DNA from: Lacrimispora saccharolytica
Lineage (GTDB): Bacteria; Bacillota; Clostridia; Lachnospirales; Lachnospiraceae
Direction: 5' to 3'
DNA length: 64,000 bases
Assembly: GCA_021531795.1 (NCBI GenBank)
Contig: JADYUL010000002.1
Coordinates: 309,987 to 373,986 of the forward strand
Shown: positions 27,128-46,765 of the stretch, piece after piece
How positions within the stretch are numbered: the stretch's first letter is position 1
How the letters are laid out: each line of letters starts with the position of its first letter
Translations under genes and position numbers: made by a program
The notes under the pieces: model-generated
Told to the model about the DNA's origin: nothing
What the model saw: only the letters and a program-made list of their open reading frames with translations
Database searches by the model: none

Positions 27128-27556
27128 TCAAAATAGCCTCTTTATTCTGCTCCCAAAGGTAATTATACTTTTCCTAAAGGGTCTGAGCAGTAACCACATT
27201 CTGCTAAGGAGACAATAAATGGGATTTGAGGCGCTGTGCTTCTTCCCATTCCTTATATAATGAGTCATGATTCCGAGCGCGTCTTTGCTTTCAATCGGAC
27301 CTTCAATTTCAGTCTGATGGTCCCCCACCATATAAAGCATATTCCCCTTACGCTTATATACCCTGTGAATAATAAGATTACCGCTAAGTCCCCTGTAGAG
27401 GCATACATCACCACGCTTAAATCTACCCGCTTCAACAGGAACAACTATGGCTTCATCCTTAGGATAGACAAAGAGCGGCCACATGCTGCTCCCTAAGGGA
27501 TGAAACTGAACAGCATTGCCGTCTCTGAGTAATTGTTCGATATTATACTTCTCCAT
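27128..27556 (-). CDS. S26-family signal peptidase-like serine protease (Ser/His type)
   Basis: The 142-aa protein has the S24/S26 fold: GSSMWP with nucleophile Ser24, KRGDVCLYR, then LIIHRV where His64 takes the place of the Lys of bacterial leader peptidases, and MVGDHQ with Asp79. The Ser/His arrangement is that of the archaeal/ER S26B branch. It lacks a clear N-terminal anchor, and a C-terminal hydrophobic/basic stretch (YCLLSRMWLLL) may bind the membrane. AAGGA stands 7 nt before the ATG. It lies downstream of the PqqD-HPrK, glycosyltransferase and ABC exporter genes, so it may cut the leader of the 152-aa protein encoded at 31712 (inference). Confidence 0.8.
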   Translation of the reverse strand: MEKYNIEQLLRDGNAVQFHPLGSSMWPLFVYPKDEAIVVPVEAGRFKRGDVCLYRGLSGNLIIHRVYKRKGNMLYMVGDHQTEIEGPIESKDALGIMTHYIRNGKKHSASNPIYCLLSRMWLLLRPFRKSIITFGSRIKRLF

Positions 27557-27584
27557 TAGAATATCCTTATCTTTTCACTTTCAA

Positions 27585-27615
27585 TTCGATTATTTCATGC
27601 TGCATAGTAATCGAA
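27585..27615. repeat. Inverted repeat between the PqqD-HPrK and S26 genes
   Basis: Arms TTCGATTA (27585-27592) and TAATCGAA (27608-27615), with an inner ATGC/GCAT pairing. It has no T-run, so it is not an obvious terminator. It lies in the 125-bp gap before the S26 peptidase gene and may be an mRNA processing or regulatory structure. Confidence 0.4.
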
Positions 27616-27681
27616 ATATCATAATAATGTTCGTTAGGATTCCACTAACGTCAGCCCGAAACATCCGACAAATAGTCTATA

Positions 27682-28875
27682 TCACTTACCGTCTAGATAT
27701 TCATCAATATATGACTTCATTAACGTATATGCACTGTCATTAATTGTACAGTACAGCTTGCATATCATGATGTCCTTAGCAATGTCCGAAATAATATCAA
27801 CATTTTTACGGACAAGCTTCTTATCCCACATTGGCGATACACTTCTGCTTAAGATTCCGATCACTCCATCCTCATAGCTCATATCTTCAATATAGTCCTT
27901 GTATCCCTGTCTTAGGATAATGATTCCGCCTAAGGGATAATCCTGAAGCTCATATATTTCACTCGTACCGCACCAGGGCGTTCCGTATACCCAGGGCTCA
28001 CCCGAAGACTCATCTGACCGGTCAACAGAACGATTACATGAACACTCACACGAAGACTCACCTGACCGGTCAATCGATGGTACAGCTAATCCTTTACCTA
28101 CACAGGCTTCTTTTCTACCTATGAGATTCAGGTCGCCGTTAATAATCCTAGCACTCCCGTTCTTCTCCCACATCCTTGCATGTGTAGTCTTACCGGTTCC
28201 CGCAGGAGCTGCGAAGAGCCACAGCCTATCGCGATACAGGATAGACGATGAATGAATGAACACTCTGCCCATCATTAATGCATAATAAGAGAATGGGATT
28301 CTGGTTGCAATCCGCATCTCATAGTCATATCCTGCAATCTCTTCCAAATCATATGTTTGGAATCTGTCGCGAATCGATTCACCTGAAGTAATATATATAT
28401 CCTCTACCAAATCAAATTTGGGAAAAGAGCAGACATATCCTCCATTCTCTGTCTTATCGACCACGATATCCTCAGATTCAAGCAGCCTATCGCGCGCGGC
28501 AGGAATATCCCCCGTAATGTCATCTATCGCGCCATCCGCCATGCTATCAGGTTTATTATTGGCGTCATCCACTCTATCAGTCACACTCATCTCACCGGCT
28601 TCAAGCAGCGCTCCCGCTCTGATAAATGCCGCACATACATTGGAGACATCCACGGAAATAATATTCCTGTCATCCTGATTCTTAGCGCCGTATTCCTCTT
28701 CAATAATACGGAACATATCCACAATTCTATGGTCGGTCTTAAACTTATCCCAAAGAATGGTTGCAAGACCACCCAGACACATAACCTTGCTTCTGCTCTG
28801 AATATCCTGCCCTGACGGCAGCAGATAATCTTTCTCACCTATTCTGTATATGTCAAACCTTGGATTTCTGATCAT
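27682..28875 (-). CDS. PqqD-like domain fused to HPr-kinase-like ATPase
   Basis: The 397-aa protein has residues 1-95 resembling PqqD peptide-binding proteins (YLLPSGQDIQSR, GLATILWDKF, V-ISVDVSNVCAAFIRAGALLE). Residues ~145-390 resemble HPr-kinase/phosphorylase-like kinases, with Walker A APAGTGKTTHA (about 223-233), INGDLNLI (245-252) and YGTPWCGTSE (297-306). In lasso-peptide clusters, HPrK-like kinases phosphorylate the precursor peptide. Here the attached PqqD domain suggests binding of a leader peptide. Residues 268-292 are a Ser/Glu/Cys-rich insert made by a DNA duplication. The gene is 8 bp after a glycosyltransferase gene in the same operon. Confidence 0.78.
   Translation of the reverse strand: MIRNPRFDIYRIGEKDYLLPSGQDIQSRSKVMCLGGLATILWDKFKTDHRIVDMFRIIEEEYGAKNQDDRNIISVDVSNVCAAFIRAGALLEAGEMSVTDRVDDANNKPDSMADGAIDDITGDIPAARDRLLESEDIVVDKTENGGYVCSFPKFDLVEDIYITSGESIRDRFQTYDLEEIAGYDYEMRIATRIPFSYYALMMGRVFIHSSSILYRDRLWLFAAPAGTGKTTHARMWEKNGSARIINGDLNLIGRKEACVGKGLAVPSIDRSGESSCECSCNRSVDRSDESSGEPWVYGTPWCGTSEIYELQDYPLGGIIILRQGYKDYIEDMSYEDGVIGILSRSVSPMWDKKLVRKNVDIISDIAKDIMICKLYCTINDSAYTLMKSYIDEYLDGK
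28003..28073. repeat. Two 23-bp direct repeats, 48-bp period, inside the PqqD-HPrK gene
   Basis: The unit at 28003-28025 recurs at 28051-28073 with one mismatch. The period of 48 bp keeps reading frame and encodes the repeated DRSxESS residues of the insert at 268-292. This is a recent in-frame duplication in a loop. Confidence 0.85.
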
Positions 28876-28883
28876 CCATTCAC

Positions 28884-29873
28884 CTACCTGTCCGTATGGT
28901 TCCTCTTCATCGAATATATCCTAAAGGCCTTCGCTGCAAGCCTTGGACTTAACCCAAACAGTATCGAGGCTACTCTGTACATCCCCTTAATCACCTGTGC
29001 CTCTCTTAATAGCTTAGCGGTTGTCTCCAGTGCATAATCCCACTCCGGGCAGGTTCCTGCCTTACCCGACCTGTCCATCCTGCCAAGCAAAAAGAACGCA
29101 AAATCAAGTGCCGACAACCTGGCAGCATCTGAAAGTTCCGGGTACCTGGTCTCATAGAAGTTCACATTGTCCATTCTGACCTTGAGTCCAACAACCTGCT
29201 TCTTCATATCCTCATCAAACGACGACGACTCTGTATGAATCCTGTAAAAATAATAGGACTCAGCCGTAACCACACACGAACTCAGTCTCTCGATCAATTT
29301 CGGCAAAAACGCGATGTCCTCATACAATTCCACCTTCGGAAATTCAAGCCCAACTAAGACATCCTTTTTTATAAGCTTCCCCCACATATGACCATATCTG
29401 TTGGCATCGGTTAAAAAGAAGTCATGAATGGCACTCCGACTGTCAAGAATACCCTCCTTGACAAATCTTTGTCTGCCCTCTCTGTTCTCACAGGCAAAAA
29501 ACGGAGTATATCCGCACATAGCCATATCATGATCACCGATCAATTTAAGCATATCTTTGACCGCATTAACAGGCAGTGTATCATCACTGTCCACAAAAAA
29601 GATATAATCTCCCCTGCTTTCCTTAAGAAGGGAGTTCCTTGCATCAGCAGGTCCCATGCCGATACACTTTATCAGCCTGATCCTCTTATCCTTCGAACAA
29701 TATTCTGATACAATACTCGCACTTTTGTCCGTAGAGGAATCATCACAGAGAAGAATATCAAGCTTATCATAGTCCTGACTTACTACTGAATCCAGGCAGG
29801 ATCCTATATACTTCTGCGTATTATGAAACGGGATTGCAATAGTAACCAAAGGCAGTGATAAAAAATTAACCAT
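28884..29873 (-). CDS. Glycosyltransferase family 2
   Basis: The approximately 329-aa cytosolic or membrane-associated inverting glycosyltransferase has the GT-A N-terminus VTIAIPFHNTQKYIGSCLDS, LLCDDSSTDKS, the DxD motif FFVDSDD, and a C-terminal acid VELYEDIAFLPKL. The sugar donor and acceptor are unknown. ATG 29873 is chosen because GGAGG stands 7 nt before it; it begins next to the stop of the ABC transporter gene. Being between an ABC exporter and a PqqD-HPrK gene, it could glycosylate the exported product (inference), or belong to the polysaccharide region. Confidence 0.88.
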   Translation of the reverse strand: MVNFLSLPLVTIAIPFHNTQKYIGSCLDSVVSQDYDKLDILLCDDSSTDKSASIVSEYCSKDKRIRLIKCIGMGPADARNSLLKESRGDYIFFVDSDDTLPVNAVKDMLKLIGDHDMAMCGYTPFFACENREGRQRFVKEGILDSRSAIHDFFLTDANRYGHMWGKLIKKDVLVGLEFPKVELYEDIAFLPKLIERLSSCVVTAESYYFYRIHTESSSFDEDMKKQVVGLKVRMDNVNFYETRYPELSDAARLSALDFAFFLLGRMDRSGKAGTCPEWDYALETTAKLLREAQVIKGMYRVASILFGLSPRLAAKAFRIYSMKRNHTDR

Positions 29874-29875
29874 AA

Positions 29876-31603
29876 TCACGCCTCCTCTTTGACTTCAAGG
29901 TTTGATACAGTATACTTCCTGTCACAGATATCCATGACCTCCAGTCTATGAGTGGTCAGTATACAGGTCCTTGGGTATGCACTTGAGGTTATATTCCGAA
30001 GCACTCTTGACGCCGTATCGGCATCAAGGGCCGAGGTTGCCTCATCTAAAAGCAGAATCGGGGAATTGCGAAGCAGGGCTCTTGCAATGGACAGGCGCTG
30101 TGACTGACCCTCAGAGAAGCCGGTGCCCCTCTCCTTAATGGTGGTATTGATGCCGTCGGGAAGCCTGGATACGAAGCTCCAGGCACAAGCCATCTTCAGG
30201 GCATCAATTATCTCTTCATCCGTGGCATCACTTTTAACATTGCGCATATTGTCGGCAATTGTACCCGGAAACATGGAATTTCCCTGGGGAACATAGGCAA
30301 AGAGTTGTCTGGTGGACGCAGTTATTGGCATGACTTCGCCATCACTCTTACCATCACCTGCAATAACCACATTCTCTCCTTCGTAGGCATTGACTATGGC
30401 AAGCATAAGTCTAAGCATTGTTGTCTTACCTTCACCCGATGGTCCAACAAGTCCAACCACCTCTCTGGGAAATGCTTCAAAGTCGGCATTTCGGAAAACC
30501 TCAGTTCCCGACATGTAATTAAAGGAGGTATTCTTAATCTTAACTCCGATACCCCTATTCTTATTCCTATTGTAGAATTCGCCTACCTCCTCACTCATAC
30601 TGTAATCCTCTCTTGGAAGGTCAAGCAGATCCATGATTCTGGCCGCAGCATTGGTAAGATTAATAGTACTGGGAACAAGTCCGATAAGACTCTGGGTAGT
30701 GCCCGATAAGGTATTGGACAGCGCTAAGAACATGGTCATGGTTCCGTAGGTGATATTTCCGCTCCACACTCTGTATACACCCCATCCATAGATTAGATAA
30801 GTAATAACATTGGACACCAGTGTAAGAATAATTGAATTAACAATTGTAACCTTCTGATAGGTTGTTTTAATACCGTTATTCTCCTTCTGCAGTTCCCTCA
30901 GTCTCTCACAGTAAAGACCTATCATGTCGAAGGCCTTAACATTCTGAATATTCGAGAAGGATTCCTGGGTAAATGAAGACATCTTGGCAGAGAATTCCAT
31001 CGCACCCATATTGGCCTTACGCATTCTCTTAAGATTCGTTCTTGATACGAAGAAGGATAACGGAACGCTGGCAATTGCAATAAGTGCAAAGGTCCAGTCA
31101 TATCTGACAACCATATAGAAGGCTGACAAGAACTTGAAGGTATATACAAAAGCATTGGGAATGGTATTAAGTATACCTGATGCCACACTTGAGCAGTCAC
31201 CCGACCATCTGGCCATAATATGACCCGAATGGTATTTGCTCAGTGACTCCCAGTCAGTAATCATAAGCTTATCATATACATCTGCCTTAATCTCATTCTC
31301 AACCTTAAGATTGATAAGCATACTTATATACGAAGACAGATTATTGAGCACAACAATACCCAACTGTACAGTAATAAGCATACAGAAGGTACGTATAAGC
31401 TCACCGGTCTTATGACCTGTTATTATATCAACGAGATCCTTGGATACCAGACTGCCCAGAAGAACTGCTGCCGCTCCGGACATTCCGATTACGGTATATA
31501 TAATAATTGAAAGTAAATGCTTCTTCCCATATCCGTATATCCACTTAATCCTCTTCAGTATTCTGTTCAAAGCTCCCCTATCAAGCTTCCACATGACATC
31601 CAT
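29876..31603 (-). CDS. ABC exporter, fused membrane and ATPase domains
   Basis: An approximately 575-aa half-transporter with an N-terminal six-helix exporter domain (about 30-320) and a C-terminal ATPase: Walker A VGPSGEGKTT, Q-loop AYVPQGNSMFPGTI, signature variant FSEGQSQRLSIARAL, Walker B ILLLDEATSALD, switch His in TTHRLEV. It has no C39 peptidase domain, so leader removal must be done by another enzyme, perhaps the S26 peptidase downstream. ATG 31603 and ATG 31594 are both possible starts (AGGGGA lies close upstream). It has its own promoter just behind the terminator of the 152-aa protein gene, and is the first gene of the ABC-GT2-PqqD/HPrK-S26 unit. Confidence 0.9.
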   Translation of the reverse strand: MDVMWKLDRGALNRILKRIKWIYGYGKKHLLSIIIYTVIGMSGAAAVLLGSLVSKDLVDIITGHKTGELIRTFCMLITVQLGIVVLNNLSSYISMLINLKVENEIKADVYDKLMITDWESLSKYHSGHIMARWSGDCSSVASGILNTIPNAFVYTFKFLSAFYMVVRYDWTFALIAIASVPLSFFVSRTNLKRMRKANMGAMEFSAKMSSFTQESFSNIQNVKAFDMIGLYCERLRELQKENNGIKTTYQKVTIVNSIILTLVSNVITYLIYGWGVYRVWSGNITYGTMTMFLALSNTLSGTTQSLIGLVPSTINLTNAAARIMDLLDLPREDYSMSEEVGEFYNRNKNRGIGVKIKNTSFNYMSGTEVFRNADFEAFPREVVGLVGPSGEGKTTMLRLMLAIVNAYEGENVVIAGDGKSDGEVMPITASTRQLFAYVPQGNSMFPGTIADNMRNVKSDATDEEIIDALKMACAWSFVSRLPDGINTTIKERGTGFSEGQSQRLSIARALLRNSPILLLDEATSALDADTASRVLRNITSSAYPRTCILTTHRLEVMDICDRKYTVSNLEVKEEA

Positions 31604-31636
31604 TCCCCTACCCACAAGGATTTATTCTTAAGCTAT

Positions 31637-31645
31637 ATTATAGCA
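31637..31645 (-). promoter_or_regulatory. Promoter of the ABC exporter operon (extended -10)
   Basis: TGC-TATAAT on the minus strand (hexamer 31642-31637) with a weak TTAGTT -35 at 17-bp spacing. The predicted start is near 31630, about 27 nt before ATG 31603. Confidence 0.65.
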
Positions 31646-31666
31646 TAGTTATTACAGTTAACTAAA

Positions 31667-31695
31667 TAAAAAAGTCCACGGATAACCCGTGGACT
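31667..31695 (-). terminator. Strong terminator after the leader-bearing protein gene
   Basis: A 9-bp perfect stem (31673-31681 with 31687-31695, AGTCCACGG/CCGTGGACT), 5-nt loop, and six T on the minus strand. It lies 17 bp past the stop at 31712 and separates that gene from the exporter operon. Confidence 0.92.
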
Positions 31696-31711
31696 AAAAT
31701 ATCATAATCAC

Positions 31712-32170
31712 TTATAAAACTTCGATGGATACACTTAATCCATTACTTGTTCCGATATTAGTACCGGTCTCAAAGAACGAACCCTGATGCTCTGTAATAT
31801 CATGATTATCCTCACCCGAACCTTCGCACTCAGCATGATTAATTGAGAACTGGAAGCTCTCATTGGGATTGAAGGCTCCGTCTCTGATAAATACAACAGT
31901 ATTGCCATTAACATCACACGACGTATATGGACCTGAGCAGTCCTTAATAAGTCTGGTGCTTCCGGGAAGAGTAACAGTTATCCTAATATAGTTGCCCGGA
32001 ACATTGCCCACACTTGCATTAATTGAAATACAAGAATGTGAACCTGAATTATGATTAGACCATGAAGCTGATACCTGTCCTGTCGGTGGCTCCTGATAAC
32101 CACTCTCAGCATATACAGCTTCAAACAATTCAATATTCTCTAAAACTATTGGCTTTTCGTAACCTTTCAT
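31712..32170 (-). CDS. Leader-bearing secreted-protein candidate (substrate of the PqqD/ABC/S26 cassette?)
   Basis: The 152-aa protein has no Sec signal peptide. It begins MKGYEKPIVLENIELFEAVY (1-20) followed by AESG. This resembles the short conserved leader (K-P-x-V..., E-L-x-E-x-VYA-x-SG) I recall from Lachnospiraceae proteins of unknown function. The rest (25-152) is Ser/Asn/Gly-rich, predicted beta-structured, with four Cys (47, 78, 85, 115), and looks like an extracellular domain. GGGGAA lies 4-5 nt before ATG 32170. It is flanked by a consensus promoter and a strong terminator, so it is probably abundantly expressed as a single gene. The exporter, PqqD-HPrK and S26 peptidase genes follow immediately. 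Function and modification are unknown. Confidence 0.72.
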   Translation of the reverse strand: MKGYEKPIVLENIELFEAVYAESGYQEPPTGQVSASWSNHNSGSHSCISINASVGNVPGNYIRITVTLPGSTRLIKDCSGPYTSCDVNGNTVVFIRDGAFNPNESFQFSINHAECEGSGEDNHDITEHQGSFFETGTNIGTSNGLSVSIEVL

Positions 32171-32229
32171 AATATTCCCCACTTTTCTTCACACACTAAC
32201 CTATAGTACCAATTCCCTAGTATACTTTG

Positions 32230-32259
32230 AATATAATATATTAATTATTGCTGTGTCAA
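32230..32259 (-). promoter_or_regulatory. Promoter of the leader-bearing protein gene (consensus -35)
   Basis: Minus strand TTGACA (32259-32254), 18-bp spacer, TATATT (32235-32230). The leader is about 55 nt to ATG 32170. A consensus -35 plus a strong downstream terminator points to high, independent expression. Confidence 0.75.
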
Positions 32260-32303
32260 CACAATTTTCGATTTTCACTAAAGCTCTGACAATTGACTAC
32301 AAT

Positions 32304-33485
32304 TTATTGTTTCCAGAGTTTCATCCTTCTTATTATTTTACCTCTTCTGTCAGCCTCCCTTAAGATATTCAGTAAACCGGTAGAGCGAACTCTTTTATTG
32401 TTTTTTATAAAATTAATAAGTGTTGCAAGCCAAAGCAGGGGCCAGATAATTACAATACCCGAGGCTGTCGGGAAGTTCTCCTTCATCTGATGATGGAATT
32501 CCTTAACATATCCTTTTATTCCGGCTTCGTCAGGCACCACTATTCTGTTACTGTTATCCTTACCGAACAAACCTGTATCAAATATCTCATCCAGTAGCTC
32601 ATCGACATTACTGTCGGATCTGATTTCCTCAATTCTCGCACTTTTGCCCGTAAGTCTTAAGTAAACTTCTTCGGATAAGCCAAGATAGGCAACGCAGATG
32701 TCAGCCATTGCCGATATGAAGGTTGTAAGTCCAAGTTCTTCAGCATAGGCTTTCAGTTTATCTATGTCGTCGACATCGCTTACGTTTAGTGCCGCAGTGT
32801 AGTCACACAGAAGCTTGATACCGAAGCCAGCATTGCACAAATGCTCTATCATATGGAGTGTCATATACAGAAGCTCAAGGTCTGCGGTCAGCACCGGGTA
32901 TTCACAGCCTATTATTGTTTTATAACTTATCTTGCCATCATCCAGCTTAAAGAGGGCATCGATTCGTTTATTCACAGCCTGTCTGGCGAATGCCCTTACC
33001 ACCTTGCGGTGCAGCTCAATGCATACGCCGTCGTACAGGTATGAGGTATGGTGATGGGAATCCTGATTAACAGTCCTAACAATGCCATGCTCTGCAAGCA
33101 GCTTATCCGCCCTCTCATAGTCACCTTCATCACATAGCAGCAAATCCACATCTCCAAAAGCCCGATATTCAGGAATTGGATAATAGCTGCAGGTCGAAGG
33201 GCCCTTAAGCAGTACCACCTTGATTCCGTTCTGCTTAAGTAGGTCAATCAGGTATCTGGCAACATAGCTTAGCTTATAGAACCTGTTTACAGACAGTTCG
33301 GCAGAGGATGCAATTGCTCTCCCACTCTCAGTATCCACATAATCGGCAAGGGGATAAAGCAGGGAGGTAACCGAGCATCTGCCCGAGAGAGTAAGATTTA
33401 TATCAAGGTTGTCCGTTACCTTAGTTCCACATATGCAGTTCTTTAATGCATTAAGCAGATTAAGTCTGTCCTTATCGTCTATCAT
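32304..33485 (-). CDS. Nucleotidyltransferase-family protein (PF14907-like)
   Basis: A 393-aa protein with the hallmark LLKGPS...YYPIPEYRAFGDVDLLL (93-117): Lys94-Gly95, Arg108 and the Asp112/Asp114 metal pair. Later it has HLCNAGFGIKLLCDY typical of this family. Relatives occur in lasso-peptide clusters of the paeninodin kind and beside HPrK-like and PqqD-like genes; their reaction is presumed nucleotidyl transfer. The C-terminus is basic with a hydrophobic stretch (IVIIWPLLWLATLI). It overlaps the flippase stop/start by 4 bp and is the last gene of the long operon, 134 bp before the leader-bearing protein gene. It may serve either the glycan or the peptide system. Confidence 0.82.
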   Translation of the reverse strand: MIDDKDRLNLLNALKNCICGTKVTDNLDINLTLSGRCSVTSLLYPLADYVDTESGRAIASSAELSVNRFYKLSYVARYLIDLLKQNGIKVVLLKGPSTCSYYPIPEYRAFGDVDLLLCDEGDYERADKLLAEHGIVRTVNQDSHHHTSYLYDGVCIELHRKVVRAFARQAVNKRIDALFKLDDGKISYKTIIGCEYPVLTADLELLYMTLHMIEHLCNAGFGIKLLCDYTAALNVSDVDDIDKLKAYAEELGLTTFISAMADICVAYLGLSEEVYLRLTGKSARIEEIRSDSNVDELLDEIFDTGLFGKDNSNRIVVPDEAGIKGYVKEFHHQMKENFPTASGIVIIWPLLWLATLINFIKNNKRVRSTGLLNILREADRRGKIIRRMKLWKQ

Positions 33486-35023
33486 CGTATACTCAGTTTC
33501 TTCTTTATTATCAGCATGCCTTTGTCATACAGAAGAGCAAAGGCACTGCTCTTACAGTTAAATAACAAATAAATAATGTTAGTAATTACAAAGCCTGTCA
33601 GGGCTCTTATTATCATAGGTATTATGCCTCTGCCTGTTATATGAATGCAGACCCATAGTGATAATGCTAAGGCAAGACCCGTCTCCGATATGAGCAGGAT
33701 CAGCTTTAAGAAATATCCTATAATCGGAAGCTCAAATTTCTTCCTATACAGTATCACAGGATCAAGCCAGATTGAGATGGCTATGGTGCTTACAAGAGTA
33801 CCGAGCATTACACCCACTGCTCCAAGCTTAAGCCCCAGTACAATAGACGCAATCAGGTTAATCGTTGCTGCAATAACAGAGCGGTATCTGTCGAAGTTGA
33901 ACAGTCCCAGAGAATCCCTGAAGAGGTATCCTGCCTGACACATGCCCGTCATATAGAAATTAACGCAGATTAACAGAGTTACACTGCTTTCAAATACATA
34001 TTCACTGCCAAATGCAATTCCCACGAATTCATCCAGAATGATATACAGACAGACCGCGGTCAGACCATATACCCAGTGCCCGAGAAGCAATATTGAATCG
34101 AATGTCCTCTTTATCGAGGTCTTGTCTCCGCTTACTCCAAGATTACCTACACTGGCAGTAATACCTGCAACAATCTGTACATAGATACTCCTTATCGATT
34201 CGACTATGAGATAGTATATGTAATAAATACCTGCAGATACCACTCCGACAATTGCTGATAATATCAGAGTATCGGTATTGTTAACCGCTATATCACCGGC
34301 CTTATGGAGCGTAATTGAATGAAGGTTTGTCTTTAACGACTGCTCTTCCCAAGCGCTTAGTGTTACAACTTCCTTATCGTCTACATAGGGAAACAATTTT
34401 TTAGCTTTTATGGTTGTACATACATTGGCTGCCACGGTTCCAAGCAGCAGACAGATTAAGAACAACAGGTAATTCTGTGTAAGCGTAAGAACCAGAATCT
34501 GAATTACCTGCTGGATCACGCAAGTTATTCCCTGGTACAGCGACCAGAAGCTTGTAAGCTGATGGGCATCCAGTACAATCCTCTTGTATATTCCAAGATA
34601 TGACAGTACCGTATTAATGAGATACAGGATATACACAAGATACAGGTATTCAATCTGTGAATCGGATTCAACGAAGACTCCCATAAAGGGAATAATGGCA
34701 AGCCCTATTATGAATATACATGCAGCCGTCCTGTTTAGATATCTTCGATAATACCTAAGCAGAGACTTCTGTTTCTCTATATCGCCCTTAGCAACCGGCT
34801 CATACATATTGTAAGCCATAGATGTGACCAAACCGAATTCCGGCAGTGTAAGGGCTGTAAGAATCAGATAGAACAGTCCGTTGACTCCGACATAATCCTG
34901 ACTGAGCGTATGCGTGAATACCACTCTTCCAACAAAACCCACAACAAGAATAGCCACCTTTCCACAGGTGGCATAGAATGCATTTCTTGCTGAATGTTCA
35001 GTTCTGGATATCGTATTCTCCAT
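33482..35023 (-). CDS. Polysaccharide flippase, Wzx/MATE-like (MOP superfamily)
   Basis: The 513-aa membrane protein has about twelve to fourteen helices. The N-terminus ARNAFYATCGKVAILVVGFVGR and TLPEFGLVTSMAYNMYEP is typical of polysaccharide_synt/Wzx proteins, which flip lipid-linked oligosaccharides across the membrane. With PelG also in this operon there are two MOP-type exporters, implying two glycans or an added lipid-linked unit. It lies 1 bp after the DUF4832 gene and overlaps the nucleotidyltransferase gene. Confidence 0.88.
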   Translation of the reverse strand: MENTISRTEHSARNAFYATCGKVAILVVGFVGRVVFTHTLSQDYVGVNGLFYLILTALTLPEFGLVTSMAYNMYEPVAKGDIEKQKSLLRYYRRYLNRTAACIFIIGLAIIPFMGVFVESDSQIEYLYLVYILYLINTVLSYLGIYKRIVLDAHQLTSFWSLYQGITCVIQQVIQILVLTLTQNYLLFLICLLLGTVAANVCTTIKAKKLFPYVDDKEVVTLSAWEEQSLKTNLHSITLHKAGDIAVNNTDTLILSAIVGVVSAGIYYIYYLIVESIRSIYVQIVAGITASVGNLGVSGDKTSIKRTFDSILLLGHWVYGLTAVCLYIILDEFVGIAFGSEYVFESSVTLLICVNFYMTGMCQAGYLFRDSLGLFNFDRYRSVIAATINLIASIVLGLKLGAVGVMLGTLVSTIAISIWLDPVILYRKKFELPIIGYFLKLILLISETGLALALSLWVCIHITGRGIIPMIIRALTGFVITNIIYLLFNCKSSAFALLYDKGMLIIKKKLSIR

Positions 35024-35024
35024 C

Positions 35025-36377
35025 TTATTTTCTTATTTCTCCAAGCAGTAGTTCCCCGTCCCTGCAATTGTCGTCATTTCTCACATTGGCCGGATAAACC
35101 GCTCTCTTTGTAGATTCCTTATATATATACAGATATATCGGCCCGTAGAGCTTAGGCATATGAACATTGAAGACGTGAGTCTCACCCGATGCAACAAGGT
35201 TAATCTGCATCCATTCGCTTACATCAAGCTTGACCTCCTGTCCATCCTTATCCTTACCCCTGATTTCAGAGCACGATTTGAAGAAGGCTCTCGAATAGCC
35301 CACATTCTCAATATATATACTTAGAACACAATTATCCGGGTCATCCGTTAACAGCTTATACTCTGTCTTTCTGATGACCAGCCTGTAGCCTAAGTGGCGA
35401 CCGATATATTCATATCCGTCCAGTCCGAAGTAAGGTCCCTTGGTAGCCCATACCATGGTTTTGAGCTTATCTATAAACCTCATGTCATGTACTCTGTTAA
35501 GGTAAGACAAATGAAGGTTTTTCATATAATCAGATATTTTATTCAAGCTGTCCCTGACTGTTGTAAGCTCATCAAGTTCATCTGACCACAATGCTTCGCC
35601 ACCGTAAGGTACTCTGTCACAGAGCTCAGATACATATTCCATCTCTTCATCAGGCTGCCAGGACTGCTCTCTTCTGGCCAGTTTTTTGGACTGACTACCG
35701 AAGGTTCCCATATGAGTCGGAGATGCAAGAATGGCATCATCGAAGAGCCCCACCCTGCACTGTCTTACATCCTCTCCTTCGGGGAACAGAATCCTTACAT
35801 AAGCCGGTCTTCTGACTGCAAGATAAGCTGTATCCTTTAATTCTTCAAGTATTACATCCGCCAGTCTCTTCAGTCTGTTGGGAGATAAGAACTTGGAGGA
35901 ATGCATCTCTCCCCAGTTGCCGATAAGCAGGCCCTGATATACATAGATTTCTCCGGAATACTCCTTAAGTATAGGGCCTAAGGTATTCATATGTCCCGTT
36001 ATCACAGACTCATCATCAGGCTCCGTCTCCATACATCTGCCGACAGTGTCATATACGACTCTGACTATCATATCGAGTCTGTAATCTCTGAAAAAATTGA
36101 AGATCATTCTAAGCTGGCTTACAGCAAGCTCATCAAGCGGCATTGTCCTGTATTTGCTTATGTCTATCAGAAGAAAAGCCAATGTATCCGTGGAATTTAG
36201 GGTATATTCCCTATCCTTCATGGTGAAGTCATCTCCGAGCTTGAAGGTGTGTATCTGATACCATCCTCTGTCGGGATTAATAATCTCATCACCCGTCTCC
36301 ACGAATTTAGCAGGAATAAAATCCTTATCAAACAGTTTGCCTATTCTTGGTATTATTGATTTCTTCGATTCGCTCAT
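35025..36377 (-). CDS. DUF4874/DUF4832 protein, likely glycoside-acting
   Basis: An approximately 450-aa protein. The N-terminal half carries INPDRGWYQIHTF and LLIDISKYRTMPLDE, as in DUF4874 (a TIM-barrel-like glycoside-hydrolase-related domain); GNWGEMHSSKFLS is a possible active-site strand. The C-terminal half has IENVGYSRAFFKS, as in DUF4832 (a beta-sandwich). The pair is common in exopolysaccharide clusters. It has no signal peptide in this reading, which is odd for a glycan hydrolase. ATG 36377 (MSESKKS) gives a 50-bp overlap with the GT2 gene; an ORF extends to 36434. Confidence 0.78.
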   Translation of the reverse strand: MSESKKSIIPRIGKLFDKDFIPAKFVETGDEIINPDRGWYQIHTFKLGDDFTMKDREYTLNSTDTLAFLLIDISKYRTMPLDELAVSQLRMIFNFFRDYRLDMIVRVVYDTVGRCMETEPDDESVITGHMNTLGPILKEYSGEIYVYQGLLIGNWGEMHSSKFLSPNRLKRLADVILEELKDTAYLAVRRPAYVRILFPEGEDVRQCRVGLFDDAILASPTHMGTFGSQSKKLARREQSWQPDEEMEYVSELCDRVPYGGEALWSDELDELTTVRDSLNKISDYMKNLHLSYLNRVHDMRFIDKLKTMVWATKGPYFGLDGYEYIGRHLGYRLVIRKTEYKLLTDDPDNCVLSIYIENVGYSRAFFKSCSEIRGKDKDGQEVKLDVSEWMQINLVASGETHVFNVHMPKLYGPIYLYIYKESTKRAVYPANVRNDDNCRDGELLLGEIRK

Positions 36378-37140
36378 ATTCGTTAACACTTTCCCTATCC
36401 ATTCCGTATGAGGATACTCTGAGTAATACCGCAATAATGGAAAATACCATCCTCACCATATAAATTCCCTGCTTCAGCAGTCCCGTGTGCATGCTGACAC
36501 CACCACTTCTGTCATGCATTACGGCAGGTATTTCCTTAACGTAATAACCTAAAAGGATCATCTGGGTAAGCATGTTGGCATCCGGATACTTATCATCAAA
36601 ATGCTTATATTTTGAATAGTACCATACAGTTCTCTTGTTTAGTCCCTGCAATCCCGAAGTAGGGTCCGTAATCTTCTGTCCTGTTGTAATTCTGATTATT
36701 CCCCTGAACATGCTGATGGCGAACTGCTTAACAAAGGATATAGGGAAGGAACCTGCACCCTCCATGAACCTCGAGCCCACCACAATGTCGGGACATCTTC
36801 CGTTTTCATCGGGTGTAGTCAGTTCGCTGTACAGTTTTAAGATATTGGACGCATCGTGCTGTCCATCGGCATCCATCTGAATGACATACTCATATCCCCT
36901 TCGAATGGCGTATTTGTATCCTACCTGAAGTCCGCTGCCGTATCCGAGGTTGAAGACATGTGTGACCACATTATGTCCTCTGTTCCTTGCGATGAACGGT
37001 GTGATATCAACGGATGCATCATTCATTATAAGCACATCCGCAATATCAGCTATTTCCGGCTCTTCAAGCTTATCAAGCAGCTGTCCTATTGTACCTGCTT
37101 CATTATATGCAGGAATAATAATCAACAATTTCTTTCTCAT
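36328..37140 (-). CDS. Glycosyltransferase family 2, polyprenyl-phosphate type
   Basis: A 270-aa GT-A enzyme: LLIIIPAYNEAGTIGQLLDKL, LIMNDASVDIT, QMDADGQHD (DxD) and the late DPTSGLQGLNKR segment typical of DPM/polyprenyl-phosphate sugar transferases. C-terminal hydrophobic stretch GIYMVRMVFSIIAVLLRV. GT2 genes of this kind are often paired with a DUF2304 protein, which is present two genes upstream. It probably makes a polyprenyl-phosphate-linked sugar for GT-C enzymes (inference). Confidence 0.9.
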   Translation of the reverse strand: MRKKLLIIIPAYNEAGTIGQLLDKLEEPEIADIADVLIMNDASVDITPFIARNRGHNVVTHVFNLGYGSGLQVGYKYAIRRGYEYVIQMDADGQHDASNILKLYSELTTPDENGRCPDIVVGSRFMEGAGSFPISFVKQFAISMFRGIIRITTGQKITDPTSGLQGLNKRTVWYYSKYKHFDDKYPDANMLTQMILLGYYVKEIPAVMHDRSGGVSMHTGLLKQGIYMVRMVFSIIAVLLRVSSYGMDRESVNEYERIEEINNTKNRQTV

Positions 37141-37153
37141 ATTTCCCCTTTAA

Positions 37154-38362
37154 TCAAACAAGCTCAAGCAATCCCCTTATCTCTTCTGCCTTGTCCAATT
37201 CTCCCAAAATACGTACTCCCGCATTGTTGCCGAGAGCTTCTCTAAACGACTCATCTGAAATAAGTCTGCTTAATGCTTCAGCAATTCCTTCTGCAGCAAA
37301 ATCGCATACAACTCCATCTATTCCGTCTCTAATCTGTTCCCTGTTTCCTTCACAGTCACTGACGATGATGGGTTTACCGAGAATTCTTGCTTCCTGAATG
37401 GCTATACTCTTTCCCTCATATTTCGAAGCATGAAGAAAAATGTCGCTCTGTCTGATATACGGATATGGATTGAGTCTGTTGCCATATAATAAGACCGTAT
37501 CGGATAGACCCAGCTTTTCAATATATTCTTCAAGAGCTTCTCTACGATTACCCTCTCCCAGAATATAATATCTAAGCTTAATGCCCCTATCCTTTAATAT
37601 CTTTATTGCATCAATACTGACCTCATAAGCCTTCTGTGCCACCAGTCTTCCCACCGACAGGATTCTGATTCCTTCAAAGTTATCATCAAAGCCGGCATCC
37701 TCAAGTGACCTCTTCTTAATTGCATCAACATTCACAATATTATGGAACACATTAACGATGGGCGCTTTTTCCGGATAAACATTTACAAAGGAATCACAAA
37801 CCTCTTCGGACACTCCATATACTCTGTCATAAAAGTCATATATTCCTTCATCAAGGCGTTTGTTATATCCGGCTATCCCATAGGCTATATGAATCCAAGC
37901 CACCTTCTTTTTTGCATTGACCTTCCTGCCGACGAAATAAGTTGAACCGCCTTCAACGAAGGCGACTGCCAGGTCGTAGGTATCCTTTATGGGATCTAAG
38001 CTTTGTGCGATTGCCTTCCAGAGAAGTTTATCACATTGAACCCTGTGCTCCTTAATCATTGAAATGAGATTACTGACAATATAAGCAAGGCACCTGAATA
38101 AGGTGCCTCTATGTAATAACGCTTTTATTGACCTGCCAAGCAGATGTCGTTGTCCCTCAGCTGTGTGAATCGGACAGGCATCAAAGTCGGAATTAAGGAT
38201 ATTCACGTAGTAAGGGATTTCGCCTATCAGTTCTCCCTGGTTAAGCAACACAAACAAATCAATTCTGTATTTCTTCGGGTCTATACTACGTAATAGCTCG
38301 ATCAAAGCCTTCTCCGCGCCGGCAAGTCCGAGAGTATTAATTACAAATAATATTTTCTTCAT
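37154..38362 (-). CDS. Glycosyltransferase family 4
   Basis: A 402-aa GT-B retaining enzyme with N-terminal ILFVINTLGLAGAEKALIELL, the C-terminal Rossmann half beginning IRILSVGRLVAQKAYEVSIDA, and the donor site LHASKYEGKSIAIQEARILGKP (the E-x7-E pair). It acts on the cytoplasmic side. It lies 16 bp after the DUF2304 gene and 13 bp before the GT2 gene. The sugar is not determinable. Confidence 0.92.
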   Translation of the reverse strand: MKKILFVINTLGLAGAEKALIELLRSIDPKKYRIDLFVLLNQGELIGEIPYYVNILNSDFDACPIHTAEGQRHLLGRSIKALLHRGTLFRCLAYIVSNLISMIKEHRVQCDKLLWKAIAQSLDPIKDTYDLAVAFVEGGSTYFVGRKVNAKKKVAWIHIAYGIAGYNKRLDEGIYDFYDRVYGVSEEVCDSFVNVYPEKAPIVNVFHNIVNVDAIKKRSLEDAGFDDNFEGIRILSVGRLVAQKAYEVSIDAIKILKDRGIKLRYYILGEGNRREALEEYIEKLGLSDTVLLYGNRLNPYPYIRQSDIFLHASKYEGKSIAIQEARILGKPIIVSDCEGNREQIRDGIDGVVCDFAAEGIAEALSRLISDESFREALGNNAGVRILGELDKAEEIRGLLELV

Positions 38363-38378
38363 ACCAACAATCAGTCTG

Positions 38379-38759
38379 TCAGATATCCCTGATATCCCTA
38401 CCCGTAAGCTCGCTTAAGCACTCAAGCATTCTTCTGTTTTCTTCATTAAGCAGGGATACGTTAATCGCAAGTTCCTGCTTCTCCCTCTCAAGCTCCGATA
38501 TCTTTAAGCTCACAAAATATGCCGCATATACCACACTAAAGAAGATTATAAGAATAAGGATGAGTCCAAGATTACTTATATACTCACCAATCTGACTTGG
38601 GTGAAGCATACAGCCTGCTACAATAATTGCCACCGATATTATTCCCCAGGCCAGACAGAAGGACTCATTCATCCTTCTCTTGGCAAGGCTCGAAACAGTG
38701 ATTACAAACATTATTATACCCATTACAAGAATGACTGTTTTAAGTATTATGGCTGCCAT
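38379..38759 (-). CDS. DUF2304 membrane protein
   Basis: A 126-aa protein with three hydrophobic helices (about 1-22, 35-52, 62-85), the R-R-x-N-E-S-x-x-L-x-W motif between helices 1 and 2 (KRRMNESFCLAWGII) and a C-terminal coiled coil. This is the DUF2304 family, usually encoded next to polyprenyl-phosphate GT2 enzymes, as here. It is thought to be an accessory or flippase partner, not demonstrated. It sits in operon between pelG and GT4. Confidence 0.87.
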   Translation of the reverse strand: MAAIILKTVILVMGIIMFVITVSSLAKRRMNESFCLAWGIISVAIIVAGCMLHPSQIGEYISNLGLILILIIFFSVVYAAYFVSLKISELEREKQELAINVSLLNEENRRMLECLSELTGRDIRDI

Positions 38760-38783
38760 AATTCATCCTCCATCCCCTAAATA

Positions 38784-40223
38784 TCAATCTCTTGAATATA
38801 CACAGTTAGAAGGCATTTTGCCTTTTCCGCGCTTCATAATCGAACCCTTACAGAATATATGAATATCCAGAGTTCTCTCGGTTTTCCTGAGTCTGAAGTA
38901 TGCCACGGTAAATCCTACATAAGCTCCTGATACAAGTCCTATTCCGTACCAGATTACGGGAAGGGTTGTCGCAATATAGCTGACTACACCTGTCACAATG
39001 AAGAATAACAGTGACGTTGCGACGGCTCCGTTCAAATCATTGTAGTAATACATAAAGATAATAAGGGCATACATAATAAACATTATGAAATATCCCGCTG
39101 CAAGACACGGATATATTGCCATTGTTTCTCCGCCGAAGCCGAATCTGGGAAGCAGAACCATTGCAATCATAAAGACTACAACCGATACTATGAACTGGAT
39201 TCTTACCAGGTTCATAACCTCCTCCATCAGCTGCTTGAACATTCTGCTCTTGGCCCTGTCAATATCCTGTCCTCTTCCACCGATTACCGCCTCCGAATAC
39301 TGACGGTACTTCTCATGGAAGGCCATCTCGACTCTTGTTAGGAAAATAACACTCGATGAAATATTGGTAAACATGGCAAGACAGCTTGCCATATCATAGG
39401 GTTGCATACATACGAAGCTCTTGGCCACTATCATATGCTCATCAGTAGTCCAAAATACGAAGTTGTGTATATACAGACCGAAGATGTACATGAAGTTGGC
39501 AACGACAAGCTGCCAGTACTTCCTAAGATATGAAAGAATAGCTCCGTATCTGCCTGAATTCTCCTTGAAGTACTGCCTGAACTGAGCGTACTCAAGGGTC
39601 GCAATAAGAAATATTCCTACAACAAGGGATACCAGCATAGCTATATCGCATCTGACACCGAAGCCCCAGTTTAATATAAGACAGAGAATAAGCGTTACAA
39701 GCATTCCCACTATGTAGAACAATGATATCTTCTTATAATCCTTACATATCGAGAGATAAAGCATGATATAGAAGGTATACATGAGACCCATATATCCTGC
39801 GAAGCCGGTAAATACATACCAGATATTAACACCACCCACGATATATTCATGTGCGCAGAACAGTACTCCCGGAATAAAAGAAAATACCGTATTCATCAGC
39901 ATACAGGTATAGAAGCAGGGTGGAATATCATCATATCTCTCTTCATAGATAACATCCGACATGAACCTCGATATTACCGCATTGAAAGGTGATGACGTAA
40001 GCAATGCAAAGATGAAGATATACAGTACCGTACAAGAATACAGTTCCCTGTGGTAGTATCCTAACTTCGAGAAGCCTGTAAGCAGCTGCATCAGAACTAC
40101 AACGCCGATAATGATGAGCATGGGTGCTATTGTTACAACCACACTGTATCCAAATCCAAACAGCTTGGCGGCAATCGAGTTCTTATTAAATATTCTATTT
40201 AATCTAATACCAATACCAGCCAT
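38784..40223 (-). CDS. pelG: PelG-like polysaccharide transporter
   Basis: The 479-aa protein has about twelve helices and the PelG signature N-terminus (MAGIGIRLNRIFNKNSIAAKLFGFGYSVVVTIAPML region). PelG is a MOP-superfamily membrane protein that partners PelF in exporting the Pel polysaccharide, a GalN/GalNAc-rich glycan. The start ATG shares a base with the pelF stop (TAATG). It is followed by DUF2304 and glycosyltransferase genes not present in the classic pel operon. Confidence 0.93.
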   Translation of the reverse strand: MAGIGIRLNRIFNKNSIAAKLFGFGYSVVVTIAPMLIIIGVVVLMQLLTGFSKLGYYHRELYSCTVLYIFIFALLTSSPFNAVISRFMSDVIYEERYDDIPPCFYTCMLMNTVFSFIPGVLFCAHEYIVGGVNIWYVFTGFAGYMGLMYTFYIMLYLSICKDYKKISLFYIVGMLVTLILCLILNWGFGVRCDIAMLVSLVVGIFLIATLEYAQFRQYFKENSGRYGAILSYLRKYWQLVVANFMYIFGLYIHNFVFWTTDEHMIVAKSFVCMQPYDMASCLAMFTNISSSVIFLTRVEMAFHEKYRQYSEAVIGGRGQDIDRAKSRMFKQLMEEVMNLVRIQFIVSVVVFMIAMVLLPRFGFGGETMAIYPCLAAGYFIMFIMYALIIFMYYYNDLNGAVATSLLFFIVTGVVSYIATTLPVIWYGIGLVSGAYVGFTVAYFRLRKTERTLDIHIFCKGSIMKRGKGKMPSNCVYSRD

Positions 40224-41647
40224 TATTCCTCTTCTTCCTGAGCCACGCTCTCATAGAGATCGTCGTAAGCTCGTCTCATTGTATCAATACTGTACTTTCT
40301 TTTCACTCTCTCATAGCCTGTCTGACCCATCTCTTTTCTGAGTTCAGGATCTCTGTACAGTCTAAGAATAGCTTCAGTAATCTCTTCCACATTCATTACA
40401 TGAGTGATGATGCCGGCCGCTCCCAAATCATCATCATTGCCATATATAAGTTCTCTACAGTTGCCGACATCAGTTGCAATAGCCGGAATCTTAGCTGCAA
40501 AGCCCTCAAGAATTGTCAGTGGCTGACCTTCCGAAATACTTGTAAGAATCGTAACATCCAATCTTCCCATATAGCTTGCTACATCTATCTTGCCGGTAAA
40601 TATAACATCCTTTACATCCAGACTGTCGACAAGGTCGAAGCACTCATTGGCATATTCTTCGTCCTCATCTGTGGGGCCAAGAATCCAGAGCTTAAGCTTA
40701 TCCTCCCTCTCCTTGGCAAAGGCAAAGGCCTGAATCAGGGTCTTCACATCCTTAATAGGTGCCACTCTTAGGACTGCACCTATATTGAAATAATTCTCAT
40801 CATTCTCTCTCTTACCCGGAATATCTGCAAATCGGCCTATGTTAATACCGTTTGGAATAACCACAGTCTTCTTGGGTTCGCAGCCCAGCTCAATCTGAAG
40901 CTCCCTGGCATGCTCATAGAGACTGGTGACACGGTTTGCCCTGTCATAGGTAACCTTAGACATCTTCTTGAACTGGTCGATCCAGATTGACTTATATACG
41001 CCCTTAACCCAGTTAGCCTTGATTATCTCTTCCTCACGCTCTCTGGTATAGATTCCATGCTCAGACAATATGAGCTTACCGCCATATTGCTGCTTAGCCA
41101 TAGTACCGATAATTCCGGCATATCCCGTAGATACACAGTGATATATATCAGCCTTAGGGATCCTGGTCTTAAGCATCAGGAAAAGTGGCAGGTAGATTGA
41201 CCTCATGGTCCATAAGAAATCCGAGAAAACCAGTCTTGAATACTTCTTATCGTATATCTCACGGACAATCTTAAGGAAATCCTTACCCATAAGCAGGTCA
41301 TCTATATAGAATCTCTTCTTCTGGAACATTTCAAATATGGTATCCCAGTCAACGTAGTTGTTGATGACCAGACTTCTAAGTGCCCTGTATTCTTTTTTCT
41401 TTAAGGATGTTCTCTTGCCCTCCTTACGTGTGGTACTCCAGTCATAATCATCAAGATATGCTTCATATACATTGATCACATTATCCGGAAGCTCATACTG
41501 GAACTGTCCCCTCTGTGTACGGTTGGCTATTATTCCAAGAATAATGAACTCATGCTCCGGAAAGCTCTTGACCAAATTATGTATCCAACCGGACACACCT
41601 CCTACAACATAGGGGTAACATCCTTCCGCTATAATACAAATCCTCAT
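40223..41647 (-). CDS. pelF: PelF-like glycosyltransferase (GT4)
   Basis: The 474-aa cytosolic GT-B enzyme is recognisable from MRICIIAEGCYPYVVGGVSG, LSEHGIYTREREEEI, VIPNGINIGRFADIPG and SEGQPLTILEGFAA (donor-site Glu pair). It polymerises the Pel chain from UDP-GalNAc in the known systems. The length is slightly under Pseudomonas PelF (507 aa). It is immediately upstream of pelG and downstream of the DUF2194 gene. Confidence 0.95.
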   Translation of the reverse strand: MRICIIAEGCYPYVVGGVSGWIHNLVKSFPEHEFIILGIIANRTQRGQFQYELPDNVINVYEAYLDDYDWSTTRKEGKRTSLKKKEYRALRSLVINNYVDWDTIFEMFQKKRFYIDDLLMGKDFLKIVREIYDKKYSRLVFSDFLWTMRSIYLPLFLMLKTRIPKADIYHCVSTGYAGIIGTMAKQQYGGKLILSEHGIYTREREEEIIKANWVKGVYKSIWIDQFKKMSKVTYDRANRVTSLYEHARELQIELGCEPKKTVVIPNGINIGRFADIPGKRENDENYFNIGAVLRVAPIKDVKTLIQAFAFAKEREDKLKLWILGPTDEDEEYANECFDLVDSLDVKDVIFTGKIDVASYMGRLDVTILTSISEGQPLTILEGFAAKIPAIATDVGNCRELIYGNDDDLGAAGIITHVMNVEEITEAILRLYRDPELRKEMGQTGYERVKRKYSIDTMRRAYDDLYESVAQEEEE

Positions 41648-41662
41648 TCCCCATCTCCGATC

Positions 41663-43495: not shown

Positions 43496-43500
43496 TGCTT

Positions 43501-45786: not shown

Positions 45787-45826
45787 AAATCTTGCTTCCT
45801 ATCCGGAATTGAAATTTGCAGGTATG

Positions 45827-46765
45827 CTATTGAAAGGCCCTGATCAATTCAAGTGTCTCCCTGTCAATAACAATATTTGATTCCTTAAGCTCCTGCATGG
45901 TCTTAAAGAAGTTTTCTCTGTCTCCACAGCTAAAGTACAGTTTGATCAATGTAGTGTATGAAGCCAGAGTATTCGGATATCTCCACAGTGCTCTCTCACA
46001 CCATGAGCGTGCCCTGTCATACTTCTCAGTCTCAATAAGTCTCAGTGCCATAGATTCATACATCTCACTTGTGATGGAAGCACCGGCAAGTCTGTAATAC
46101 TTCTCAAGAAGCTTGTCTAAGATATCGGTATATCCATTCTGTTCAAGCTTAGACAGGATATGCTGCTCAAGTACCTTATTCATATATACAAACAGTTTCT
46201 TGATATCATAAATAAGTTGTTCTCTCTTGCTCTCATCCTCTTCATCAATATCGTAAATTCTTGCATTTTCCTTACGTACCAGCATCCTGAAATCATTAAT
46301 TGCATCCTGTAGGATAGATGCGGCATAGTGAGAGGTCTCCGTATCCTCTGCGTTAAGCGCCATATTGATCGCAGACAGTGACTCACTGTAATCTCCCTGC
46401 GCCATGTTGAGCACAAGTTCTCTAAGCTCTCCCTTGTCAGCAACCTCAATCGCTTCCTCAACGGGAACAAAGTCTCTCTCCTTATCCTCATTGATTCTGA
46501 CAAGTTCCTTGCTCTTCTCCTTGCTGAATACAACGTCAGACAAATCCACCTTCCTGTAGAACAGCAGTCTGTAAAATAAGTAACTGATAAAGAATAGCAG
46601 CGGTCCGATACCCGGAGCATAGAGCATAATCAGGCTTCGCATCGCAACCTTTTTCCTGCTGGTCCTGTTAAAAATCATACCAAACAGCAGATACAGGAGA
46701 CTCACTATTAAGTTAACAATCAGGAAGATGATAAACCATCTCAAATACTTATCCGAATTCATCAT
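45827..46765 (-). CDS. pelE: PelE-like membrane TPR protein
   Basis: The 312-aa protein has two N-terminal helices (about 8-31 and 42-66, with MLYAPGIGPLLFFISYLFYRLLFY), then a helical soluble part with TPR-like repeats (YDRARSWCERALWRYPNTLASY, LIKLYFSCGDRENFFKTMQEL). PelE in Pseudomonas is a small membrane-TPR scaffold that binds PelD. The position directly after the PelD-like gene (4-bp overlap) supports equivalence. It is larger than most PelE soluble parts. Confidence 0.75.
   Translation of the reverse strand: MMNSDKYLRWFIIFLIVNLIVSLLYLLFGMIFNRTSRKKVAMRSLIMLYAPGIGPLLFFISYLFYRLLFYRKVDLSDVVFSKEKSKELVRINEDKERDFVPVEEAIEVADKGELRELVLNMAQGDYSESLSAINMALNAEDTETSHYAASILQDAINDFRMLVRKENARIYDIDEEDESKREQLIYDIKKLFVYMNKVLEQHILSKLEQNGYTDILDKLLEKYYRLAGASITSEMYESMALRLIETEKYDRARSWCERALWRYPNTLASYTTLIKLYFSCGDRENFFKTMQELKESNIVIDRETLELIRAFQ

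What the first reader, a model, noticed from the sequence alone, without database searches (positions are those of the whole stretch)
27128..33485. Candidate undescribed maturation/export cassette: leader-bearing 152-aa protein + ABC exporter + GT2 + PqqD-HPrK + S26B peptidase (+ nucleotidyltransferase)
Sequence shows a separately promoted and terminated gene (31712-32170) for a protein without a Sec signal but with a 24-residue KPIV...ELFEAVYAESG head. It is followed by an ABC exporter lacking a C39 peptidase, a glycosyltransferase, a PqqD-like domain fused to an HPr-kinase-like ATPase, and a Ser/His S26-type peptidase, and is preceded by a PF14907-like nucleotidyltransferase. Known: HPrK-like kinases, PqqD/RRE proteins and this nucleotidyltransferase recur in lasso-peptide clusters (paeninodin type). 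Here the lasso cyclase and the B2 protease are absent and the substrate is a full Cys-containing domain. Inferred: PqqD binds the head, the kinase/GT modify, the ABC exports, and S26 cuts near VYAESG.
Basis: partly seen in the sequence, partly recalled or inferred. Interest (0 to 1): 0.85.

Follow-up and report, generated by a model that had tools for sequence, protein, structure and literature searches.

The report
Leader-guided protein phosphorylation and export cassette
A bacterial gene cluster encodes a protein with a short N-terminal tag, predicted to fold as a beta-sandwich, next to a kinase predicted to bind the tag and predicted to phosphorylate the protein, a peptidase that would cut the tag off, and a transporter that likely exports it; very similar tags sit on different proteins in dozens of related bacteria, many from animal guts, so the tag probably marks cargo for a general labelling and export route.

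Summary
Window 27128-33485 encodes an S26 peptidase with Ser/His/Asp, a PqqD(RRE)-HPrK fusion kinase, a GT2, an ABC exporter without C39, a 152-aa protein with promoter- and terminator-like sites, and a PF14907 nucleotidyltransferase. The head is a real module. In 299 family genomes, heads and strong RRE-kinase matches coincide in 16 genomes; 1 has a head only and 4 a kinase only. Of 80 loci fetched with the kinase profile, 69 encode a head protein (reversed-ORF control: 0 hits). The head reads YxKP...E-G-V-Y-A-x-S-G; the bodies differ. Kinase residues 1-94 match a lasso RRE solved with its leader. The cargo model is a beta-sandwich, with CBM2 domains as the top Foldseek rows. GT2 is not core. 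A 2026 paper (PMC13381572) describes related 'LPP' clusters in Bacilli: SipW-like peptidase, discrete RRE, HprK kinase, NTP-transferase, MsbA-like exporter, YxxP leader, polyphosphorylated core Ser. This is therefore a new variant, probably of Lachnospiraceae, with fused RRE-kinase, another leader and protein-sized cargo, not a wholly unknown system. Best prediction: Ser23 is phosphorylated, S26 cuts after FEA18 (or VYA21), and the cargo is exported beside exopolysaccharide genes. All chemistry is inferred.

The parts
32230..32259 (-). promoter-like site TTGACA-18-TATATT in front of the cargo gene
   Evidence: 11 of 12 consensus positions; a consensus match only
31712..32170 (-). cargo gene: 152-aa leader-bearing protein with a predicted beta-sandwich body
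32117..32170 (-). predicted leader, residues 1-18 (MKGYEKPIVLENIELFEA), with Y4-x-x-P7-x-V9; alternative end is A21
   Evidence: head alignments; cleavage position inferred from LppA F-3 E-2 T-1 (PMC13381572)
32102..32104 (-). codon of Ser23, predicted phospho-acceptor (counterpart of LppA core Ser3)
   Evidence: all 110 unique heads counted have an SG 18-20 residues after the Tyr; phosphorylation inferred
31673..31695 (-). terminator-like site after the cargo gene
   Evidence: 10-bp stem, T-rich tail
29876..31615 (-). ABC exporter, MsbA-like half-transporter without C39 domain
   Evidence: homolog in 74 of 80 kinase loci
28884..29879 (-). GT2 glycosyltransferase, accessory (not core)
   Evidence: above 100 bits in 2 of 49 long loci
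27682..28875 (-). RRE (PqqD-like, residues 1-94) fused to a kinase domain of HPrK/PEPCK fold
27128..27556 (-). S26 (Ser/His/Asp) peptidase, predicted leader peptidase
   Evidence: within 500 bp of the kinase in 55 of 64 loci with both
32304..33485 (-). PF14907 nucleotidyltransferase, which may modify the phospho-Ser
   Evidence: homolog in 43 of 80 kinase loci
33482..35023 (-). flippase-like membrane protein overlapping the nucleotidyltransferase start; frequent neighbour
   Evidence: hit above 80 bits in 26 of 49 long loci; no Pfam hit; 'flippase-like' is my label

Best explanation
The locus encodes a protein with a YxxP head beside an RRE-HPrK fusion kinase, an S26 peptidase, a nucleotidyltransferase and an ABC exporter; the kinase's RRE is predicted to dock the head, the kinase would phosphorylate the conserved Ser23, the peptidase would remove the leader, the nucleotidyltransferase may cap the phosphate with a sugar or nucleotide, and the transporter likely exports the predicted beta-sandwich body. 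It is a relative of the LPP clusters of Bacilli, seen here in the Lachnospiraceae; it differs in that the RRE is fused to the kinase, the leader is YxKPxVxxNxELxEGVYAxSG, and the cargo bodies are domain-sized and of several kinds. Shown here: gene content, head conservation, co-occurrence, RRE and kinase folds (models plus profile hits), intact catalytic residues. Inferred: docking, phosphorylation at Ser23, cut after A18 (FEA|VYAESG, by analogy with LppA FET|) or after A21, capping, export, and action at the cell surface or in the exopolysaccharide matrix.
Against: No chemistry was tested. The window's RRE is a divergent one (G35 and V80 where most have N and F). Deleting lppN did not change the LPP products seen, so capping by the nucleotidyltransferase is the weakest step; its homolog is found in only 43 of 80 loci, and S26 in 64 of 80, although some loci are cut short. 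11 of 80 loci show no head; L138 and L168 keep the ABC within full flanks and still show none. G203 has three heads and no strong kinase match. Kinase-only genomes: G277, G042 and G106 show no head. The full LPP leader motif is not matched. hhalign finds no relation between the window body and the commonest cargo body, and CBM2 likeness of the window body rests on fold only, among other beta-sandwiches.
Confidence: 0.72

Rival explanations
1. Secretion signal only: the RRE and S26 peptidase serve leader-dependent export of a matrix protein, SipW/TasA-like, and the kinase domain is regulatory or acts on something else; SG is simply part of the peptidase site.
For: The S26 enzyme is of the Ser/His type; a nucleotidyltransferase homolog was not found in 37 of 80 loci; lppN deletion had no visible effect in LPP.
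Against: Kinase residues H208, K229 and D248 are kept in 81 of 81 proteins. In LppA, substitutions at core residues 1-5 did not impair LppS cleavage, so a conserved Ser-Gly on the core side points to the modifying enzymes.
Confidence: 0.15
2. Bacteriocin or toxin export: the diverse bodies are secreted antagonistic proteins with a common leader.
For: Two or more body clusters in 15 of 70 loci; patchy distribution (of 19 other genomes of the genus only G010 has a cargo match); ABC exporter.
Against: No immunity-like gene was seen among the 22 most frequent neighbour families printed for 49 loci (judged by eye and by Pfam for ten of the neighbour proteins); polysaccharide genes are common there.
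Confidence: 0.08
3. An unrecognised lasso-type RiPP cluster whose cyclase is encoded elsewhere.
For: YxxP leader, RRE, HPrK-like kinase and nucleotidyltransferase are shared with paeninodin-type clusters (PMC9266682, PMC13381572). The genome has one match to PF13471 (B2-type fold), just over its cut-off, on another contig.
Against: No cyclase or B2 among the nine proteins scanned; the PF13471 match covers only positions 57-96 of 117; a body of about 130 residues predicted to fold is unlike a lasso core. A cyclase was not searched genome-wide.
Confidence: 0.03

Closest known systems
LPP (linear polyphosphorylated peptide) clusters of Bacilli, lppA-K-B-S-D-N (PMC13381572, 2026)
   Same: SipW-like S26 peptidase, RRE, HprK-like kinase, NTP-transferase, MsbA-like exporter; precursors of 35-200 aa with a conserved YxxPxV head and variable C termini; often beside polysaccharide genes; conserved Ser 18 residues after the Tyr (here 19)
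   Different: RRE fused to the kinase instead of discrete; leader YxKPxVxxNxELxEGVYAxSG instead of YxxPxVLxHQxIxFETxxS; cargo predicted to hold whole domains; found here in the Lachnospiraceae; that paper's main text holds neither 'Lachnospir' nor 'Clostridi', and its supplements could not be read here
Paeninodin-type lasso peptide clusters (PadeK, PsmK/PsmN; PMC9266682 passages)
   Same: HprK-like kinase, nucleotidyltransferase, RRE, Y/WxxP leader
   Different: no lasso cyclase or B2 protease in the cassette, S26 peptidase instead, large core, predicted Ser near the N terminus instead of the C terminus
SipW/TasA matrix protein secretion of Bacillus (recalled; SipW is named in PMC13381572)
   Same: Ser/His S26 peptidase and a secreted beta-sandwich protein beside exopolysaccharide genes
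   Different: RRE, kinase and dedicated ABC exporter present; leader is not a Sec signal by its sequence
C39 peptidase-containing (double-glycine) ABC exporters
   Same: leader-bearing substrate with an ABC exporter
   Different: exporter has no C39 domain; a stand-alone serine peptidase instead

Membership tests
LPP (PMC13381572) | SpI/S26 SipW-like peptidase with Ser/His/Asp | tested here: met
   Ser24, His64, Asp79; kept in 65 of 65 aligned; similarity to LppS itself was not measured
LPP (PMC13381572) | discrete (stand-alone) RRE | tested here: not met
   RRE is the N-terminal 94 residues of the kinase; two family relatives, G277 and G104, do have it in a separate frame
LPP (PMC13381572) | HprK-like kinase | tested here: met
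LPP (PMC13381572) | NTP-transferase and MsbA-like exporter | tested here: met
   PF14907 121 bits; best NCBIfam hit of the ABC is MsbA_rel, below its cut-off
LPP (PMC13381572) | leader motif YxxPxVLxHQxIxFETxxS | tested here: not met
   YxxPxVL part kept; HQ and FET replaced (window: NI and FEA)
LPP (PMC13381572) | polyphosphorylation of a core Ser and RRE-dependent cleavage | not testable with these tools
   needs expression and mass spectrometry
LPP (PMC13381572) | RRE falls in the LPP clade of the RRE tree | not tested
   no tree built; PDB profile scores of TbiB1 and LppB are nearly tied
lasso peptide | macrolactam cyclase and B2 protease in the cluster | tested here: not met
   none among the nine proteins scanned, 27128-37140
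RRE (PqqD-like) domain | winged-helix RRE fold with leader-contact residues | tested here: met
CBM2 carbohydrate-binding module | CBM2 sequence family match for the window cargo | tested here: not met
   no Pfam hit for the window body; a different cargo body (L118) hits PF00553 at E 1.1e-3, below cut-off
CBM2 carbohydrate-binding module | CBM2-like fold | tested here: inconclusive

The most novel reading that the evidence does not exclude
A general tagging and export route of gut Lachnospiraceae: a YxxP leader read by an RRE-kinase fusion sends whole folded domains out of the cell with a phosphate-linked sugar on an N-terminal Ser, joining matrix proteins covalently to the exopolysaccharide made by the neighbouring genes.
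Probability: 0.22. Interest if true: 0.87.

Novelty: new variant of a known kind. Interest (0 to 1): 0.63.

Why it matters
RRE-guided modification has been studied mostly for small peptides (from general knowledge). Here the same logic sits on domain-sized proteins, with one leader on unlike bodies, in a family of gut bacteria. It makes the open question of what LPP-type clusters are for directly testable: the leader, the predicted phospho-site, the predicted cut sites and the cargo are named, and the cassette abuts exopolysaccharide genes. If export and tagging are confirmed, the leader could also be used to send chosen proteins out of such anaerobes.

Full report
What is there. The window segment 27128-33485 carries, on the minus strand, an S26 peptidase, a PqqD-HPrK fusion, a GT2, an ABC exporter, a 152-aa orphan protein and a PF14907 nucleotidyltransferase. 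The orphan's gene has a promoter-like site (32259-32230, 11 of 12) and a terminator-like site (31695-31673), so it is probably expressed apart from its neighbours. Upstream on the same strand lies a run of polysaccharide genes that includes PelG (PF16933, 473 bits) and PelF-like DUF3492 (274 bits) proteins; a Gram-positive Pel cluster is known from print (PMC7112168, search listing only). Its family is probably Lachnospiraceae: the family's G041 has a contig of the same length (95156) as a record titled Acetatifactor sp., and Acetatifactor is placed there from general knowledge.

The head is a module. Nineteen of 28 candidate database proteins match the orphan; of the ten read, all but the fragment P0018 start with the head. 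A profile of five heads, 28 positions, searched in 299 genomes of the family found 21 genomes at E<=0.05 and 17 at E<=1e-3. The bodies behind the heads are mostly unlike the window body: an alignment of 25 head proteins has the invariant columns Y4, P7, E17, V19, S23 and G24, all in the head. The same 299 genomes searched with a profile of the RRE-kinase gave 74 genomes at E<=1e-10, which include all 17 head genomes, and 20 at E<1e-50, of which 16 are head genomes. The second line was drawn after seeing the list: it parts the long RRE-kinase matches from the many weaker HPrK-like or PqqD-like ones. G104 and G277 among the 20 have RRE and kinase in separate frames. Kinase-only genomes are G153, G277, G042 and G106; G153 has a head-like protein (DTAEGIYAGSG, no YxxP) with a window-like body beside its ABC (L087); G042 and G106 kinases are distant (24-25% identity) with no ABC or S26 homolog in the stretch at the thresholds used. 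Head only: G203, a 68% complete genome. Fisher p 6e-22; because most kinases in the profile came from head loci, this number flatters the link.

Reverse test. A scan of GTDB species contigs with the kinase profile gave 199 stretches, 161 relatives, of which the best 80 were kept. By title most are Lachnospiraceae or genera such as Acetatifactor, Roseburia, Blautia, Coprococcus (C. catus) and Eubacterium (E. plexicaudatum); some are titled otherwise (Gastranaerophilales, Oscillospiraceae, Clostridiaceae, Bacillota). Many titles name gut or rumen samples. Of these 80, 69 have a head protein, 74 the ABC, 64 the S26, 43 the nucleotidyltransferase, and 58 have ABC, S26 and head together; 24 have two or more heads. 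Seven of the 80 lie on contigs of the same length as contigs read before (L096, L106, L115, L129, L158, L162, L173; six of these gave heads to the model); without them it is 62 of 73. In 49 loci longer than 19 kb: ABC 48, S26 40, nucleotidyltransferase 29, head 46, GT2 above 100 bits 2, flippase-like protein above 80 bits 26. The head model hits 96 of 9731 ORFs in the 80 loci and none of the reversed ORFs. Heads lie a median of 170.5 bases from the ABC gene, 76 of 96 within 1 kb. Of the 11 loci without a head, L097, L147, L148, L150 and L161 are short or cut at a contig end; five others (L117, L138, L152, L168, L174; L117 and L174 also cut on one side) were looked through and none was seen; L153 was only pattern-scanned. 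In a phylum sample the head was found in 1 of 398 genomes, the window's own; in an order sample in 7 of 295, of which 5 are the same family and 2 marginal.

Ser and cut site. 121 head proteins gave 110 unique heads. All 110 have [YFW]xxP (Tyr in all but one, Phe in one) and an SG 18-20 residues later, 19 in 104, 20 in 4 and 18 in 2. Within the 104 of spacing 19 (chosen by that spacing, so Ser and Gly are fixed there) Glu17 is invariant and a small residue follows it in 103. The heads were found with models containing these residues, which favours conservation. In LppA the leader ends F-3 E-2 T-1 and the phosphorylated residue is core Ser3, 18 residues after the Tyr by my count. The window type reads F16-E17-A18, then V-Y-A-E-S23. 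The best reading is therefore a cut after A18 and phosphorylation of Ser23; a cut after A21 (V-Y-A; 83 of 104 fit a simple -3/-1 rule) is the alternative. LppS does not need core residues 1-5, so the conserved Ser-Gly is more likely read by the kinase or the nucleotidyltransferase. PsmN, annotated as a nucleotidyltransferase, is needed for one or two hexoses on the phospho-Ser of a lasso peptide, though the review leaves open that a host enzyme adds them (PMC9266682, passages). In LPP, deleting lppN changed nothing that was seen. That our enzyme caps the phosphate is thus the weakest step.

What is known. PMC13381572 (read: abstract and sections 4, 6, 7, 8, 9, 11, 12, plus passage searches) describes LPP clusters of Bacilli with the same kinds of enzyme, found in capsular polysaccharide loci, with precursors of 35-200 aa. 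Its main text holds neither 'Lachnospir' nor 'Clostridi'. Literature searches listed no paper that I recognise as describing an RRE-HPrK fusion of this kind or this head; only four of the listed papers were opened. PMC12710340 (passages) reports new RRE fusions, but the word kinase is not in its main text. PMC7533575 (passages) finds HPr kinase, PqqD and nucleotidyltransferase genes in lasso clusters of rumen bacteria. Papers outside the held library were not searched. The system is thus not filed as an LPP member, since discrete RRE and full leader motif are not met, but it most likely works like one.

Noticed in passing
window 33482-48933: Pel-like exopolysaccharide gene run (PelG PF16933 473 bits, PelF-like DUF3492, DUF2194, DUF4874/DUF4832) directly upstream of the cassette on the same strand; 46762-48933 was not scanned against Pfam.
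   Followed up: partly
window 28000-28089: The kinase carries a low-confidence insertion with an imperfect repeat (SIDRSGESSCE / SVDRSDESSGE), absent from the 11 relatives aligned.
   Followed up: no
L088 and L092 (G277, G104): LPP-like clusters in the same family with RRE and kinase in separate frames plus S26 and ABC; both lie beside a gene that I read by eye as a histidine kinase whose protein carries a YQKP stretch near its N terminus.
   Followed up: partly
L052 9822-10067 (G104): A small Cys-rich protein whose head reads YNKPIISENEELFFEPVLAAYS, closer to the LPP motif (F-E) and a possible link between both leader types.
   Followed up: no
L045 and L049 (G203): Head proteins with weak ubiquitin-family hits (PF00240 E 1.5e-3 and 1.3e-4, below cut-off) in a 68% complete genome without a strong RRE-kinase match.
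   Followed up: partly
22 of 80 kinase loci, e.g. L108 16638-17642: Stealth-family genes (sugar-phosphate transferase type, recalled) near the cassette.
   Followed up: partly
L108 14618-16687: One open frame runs from the flippase-like protein into a partial PF14907 domain, hinting that the two act together.
   Followed up: no
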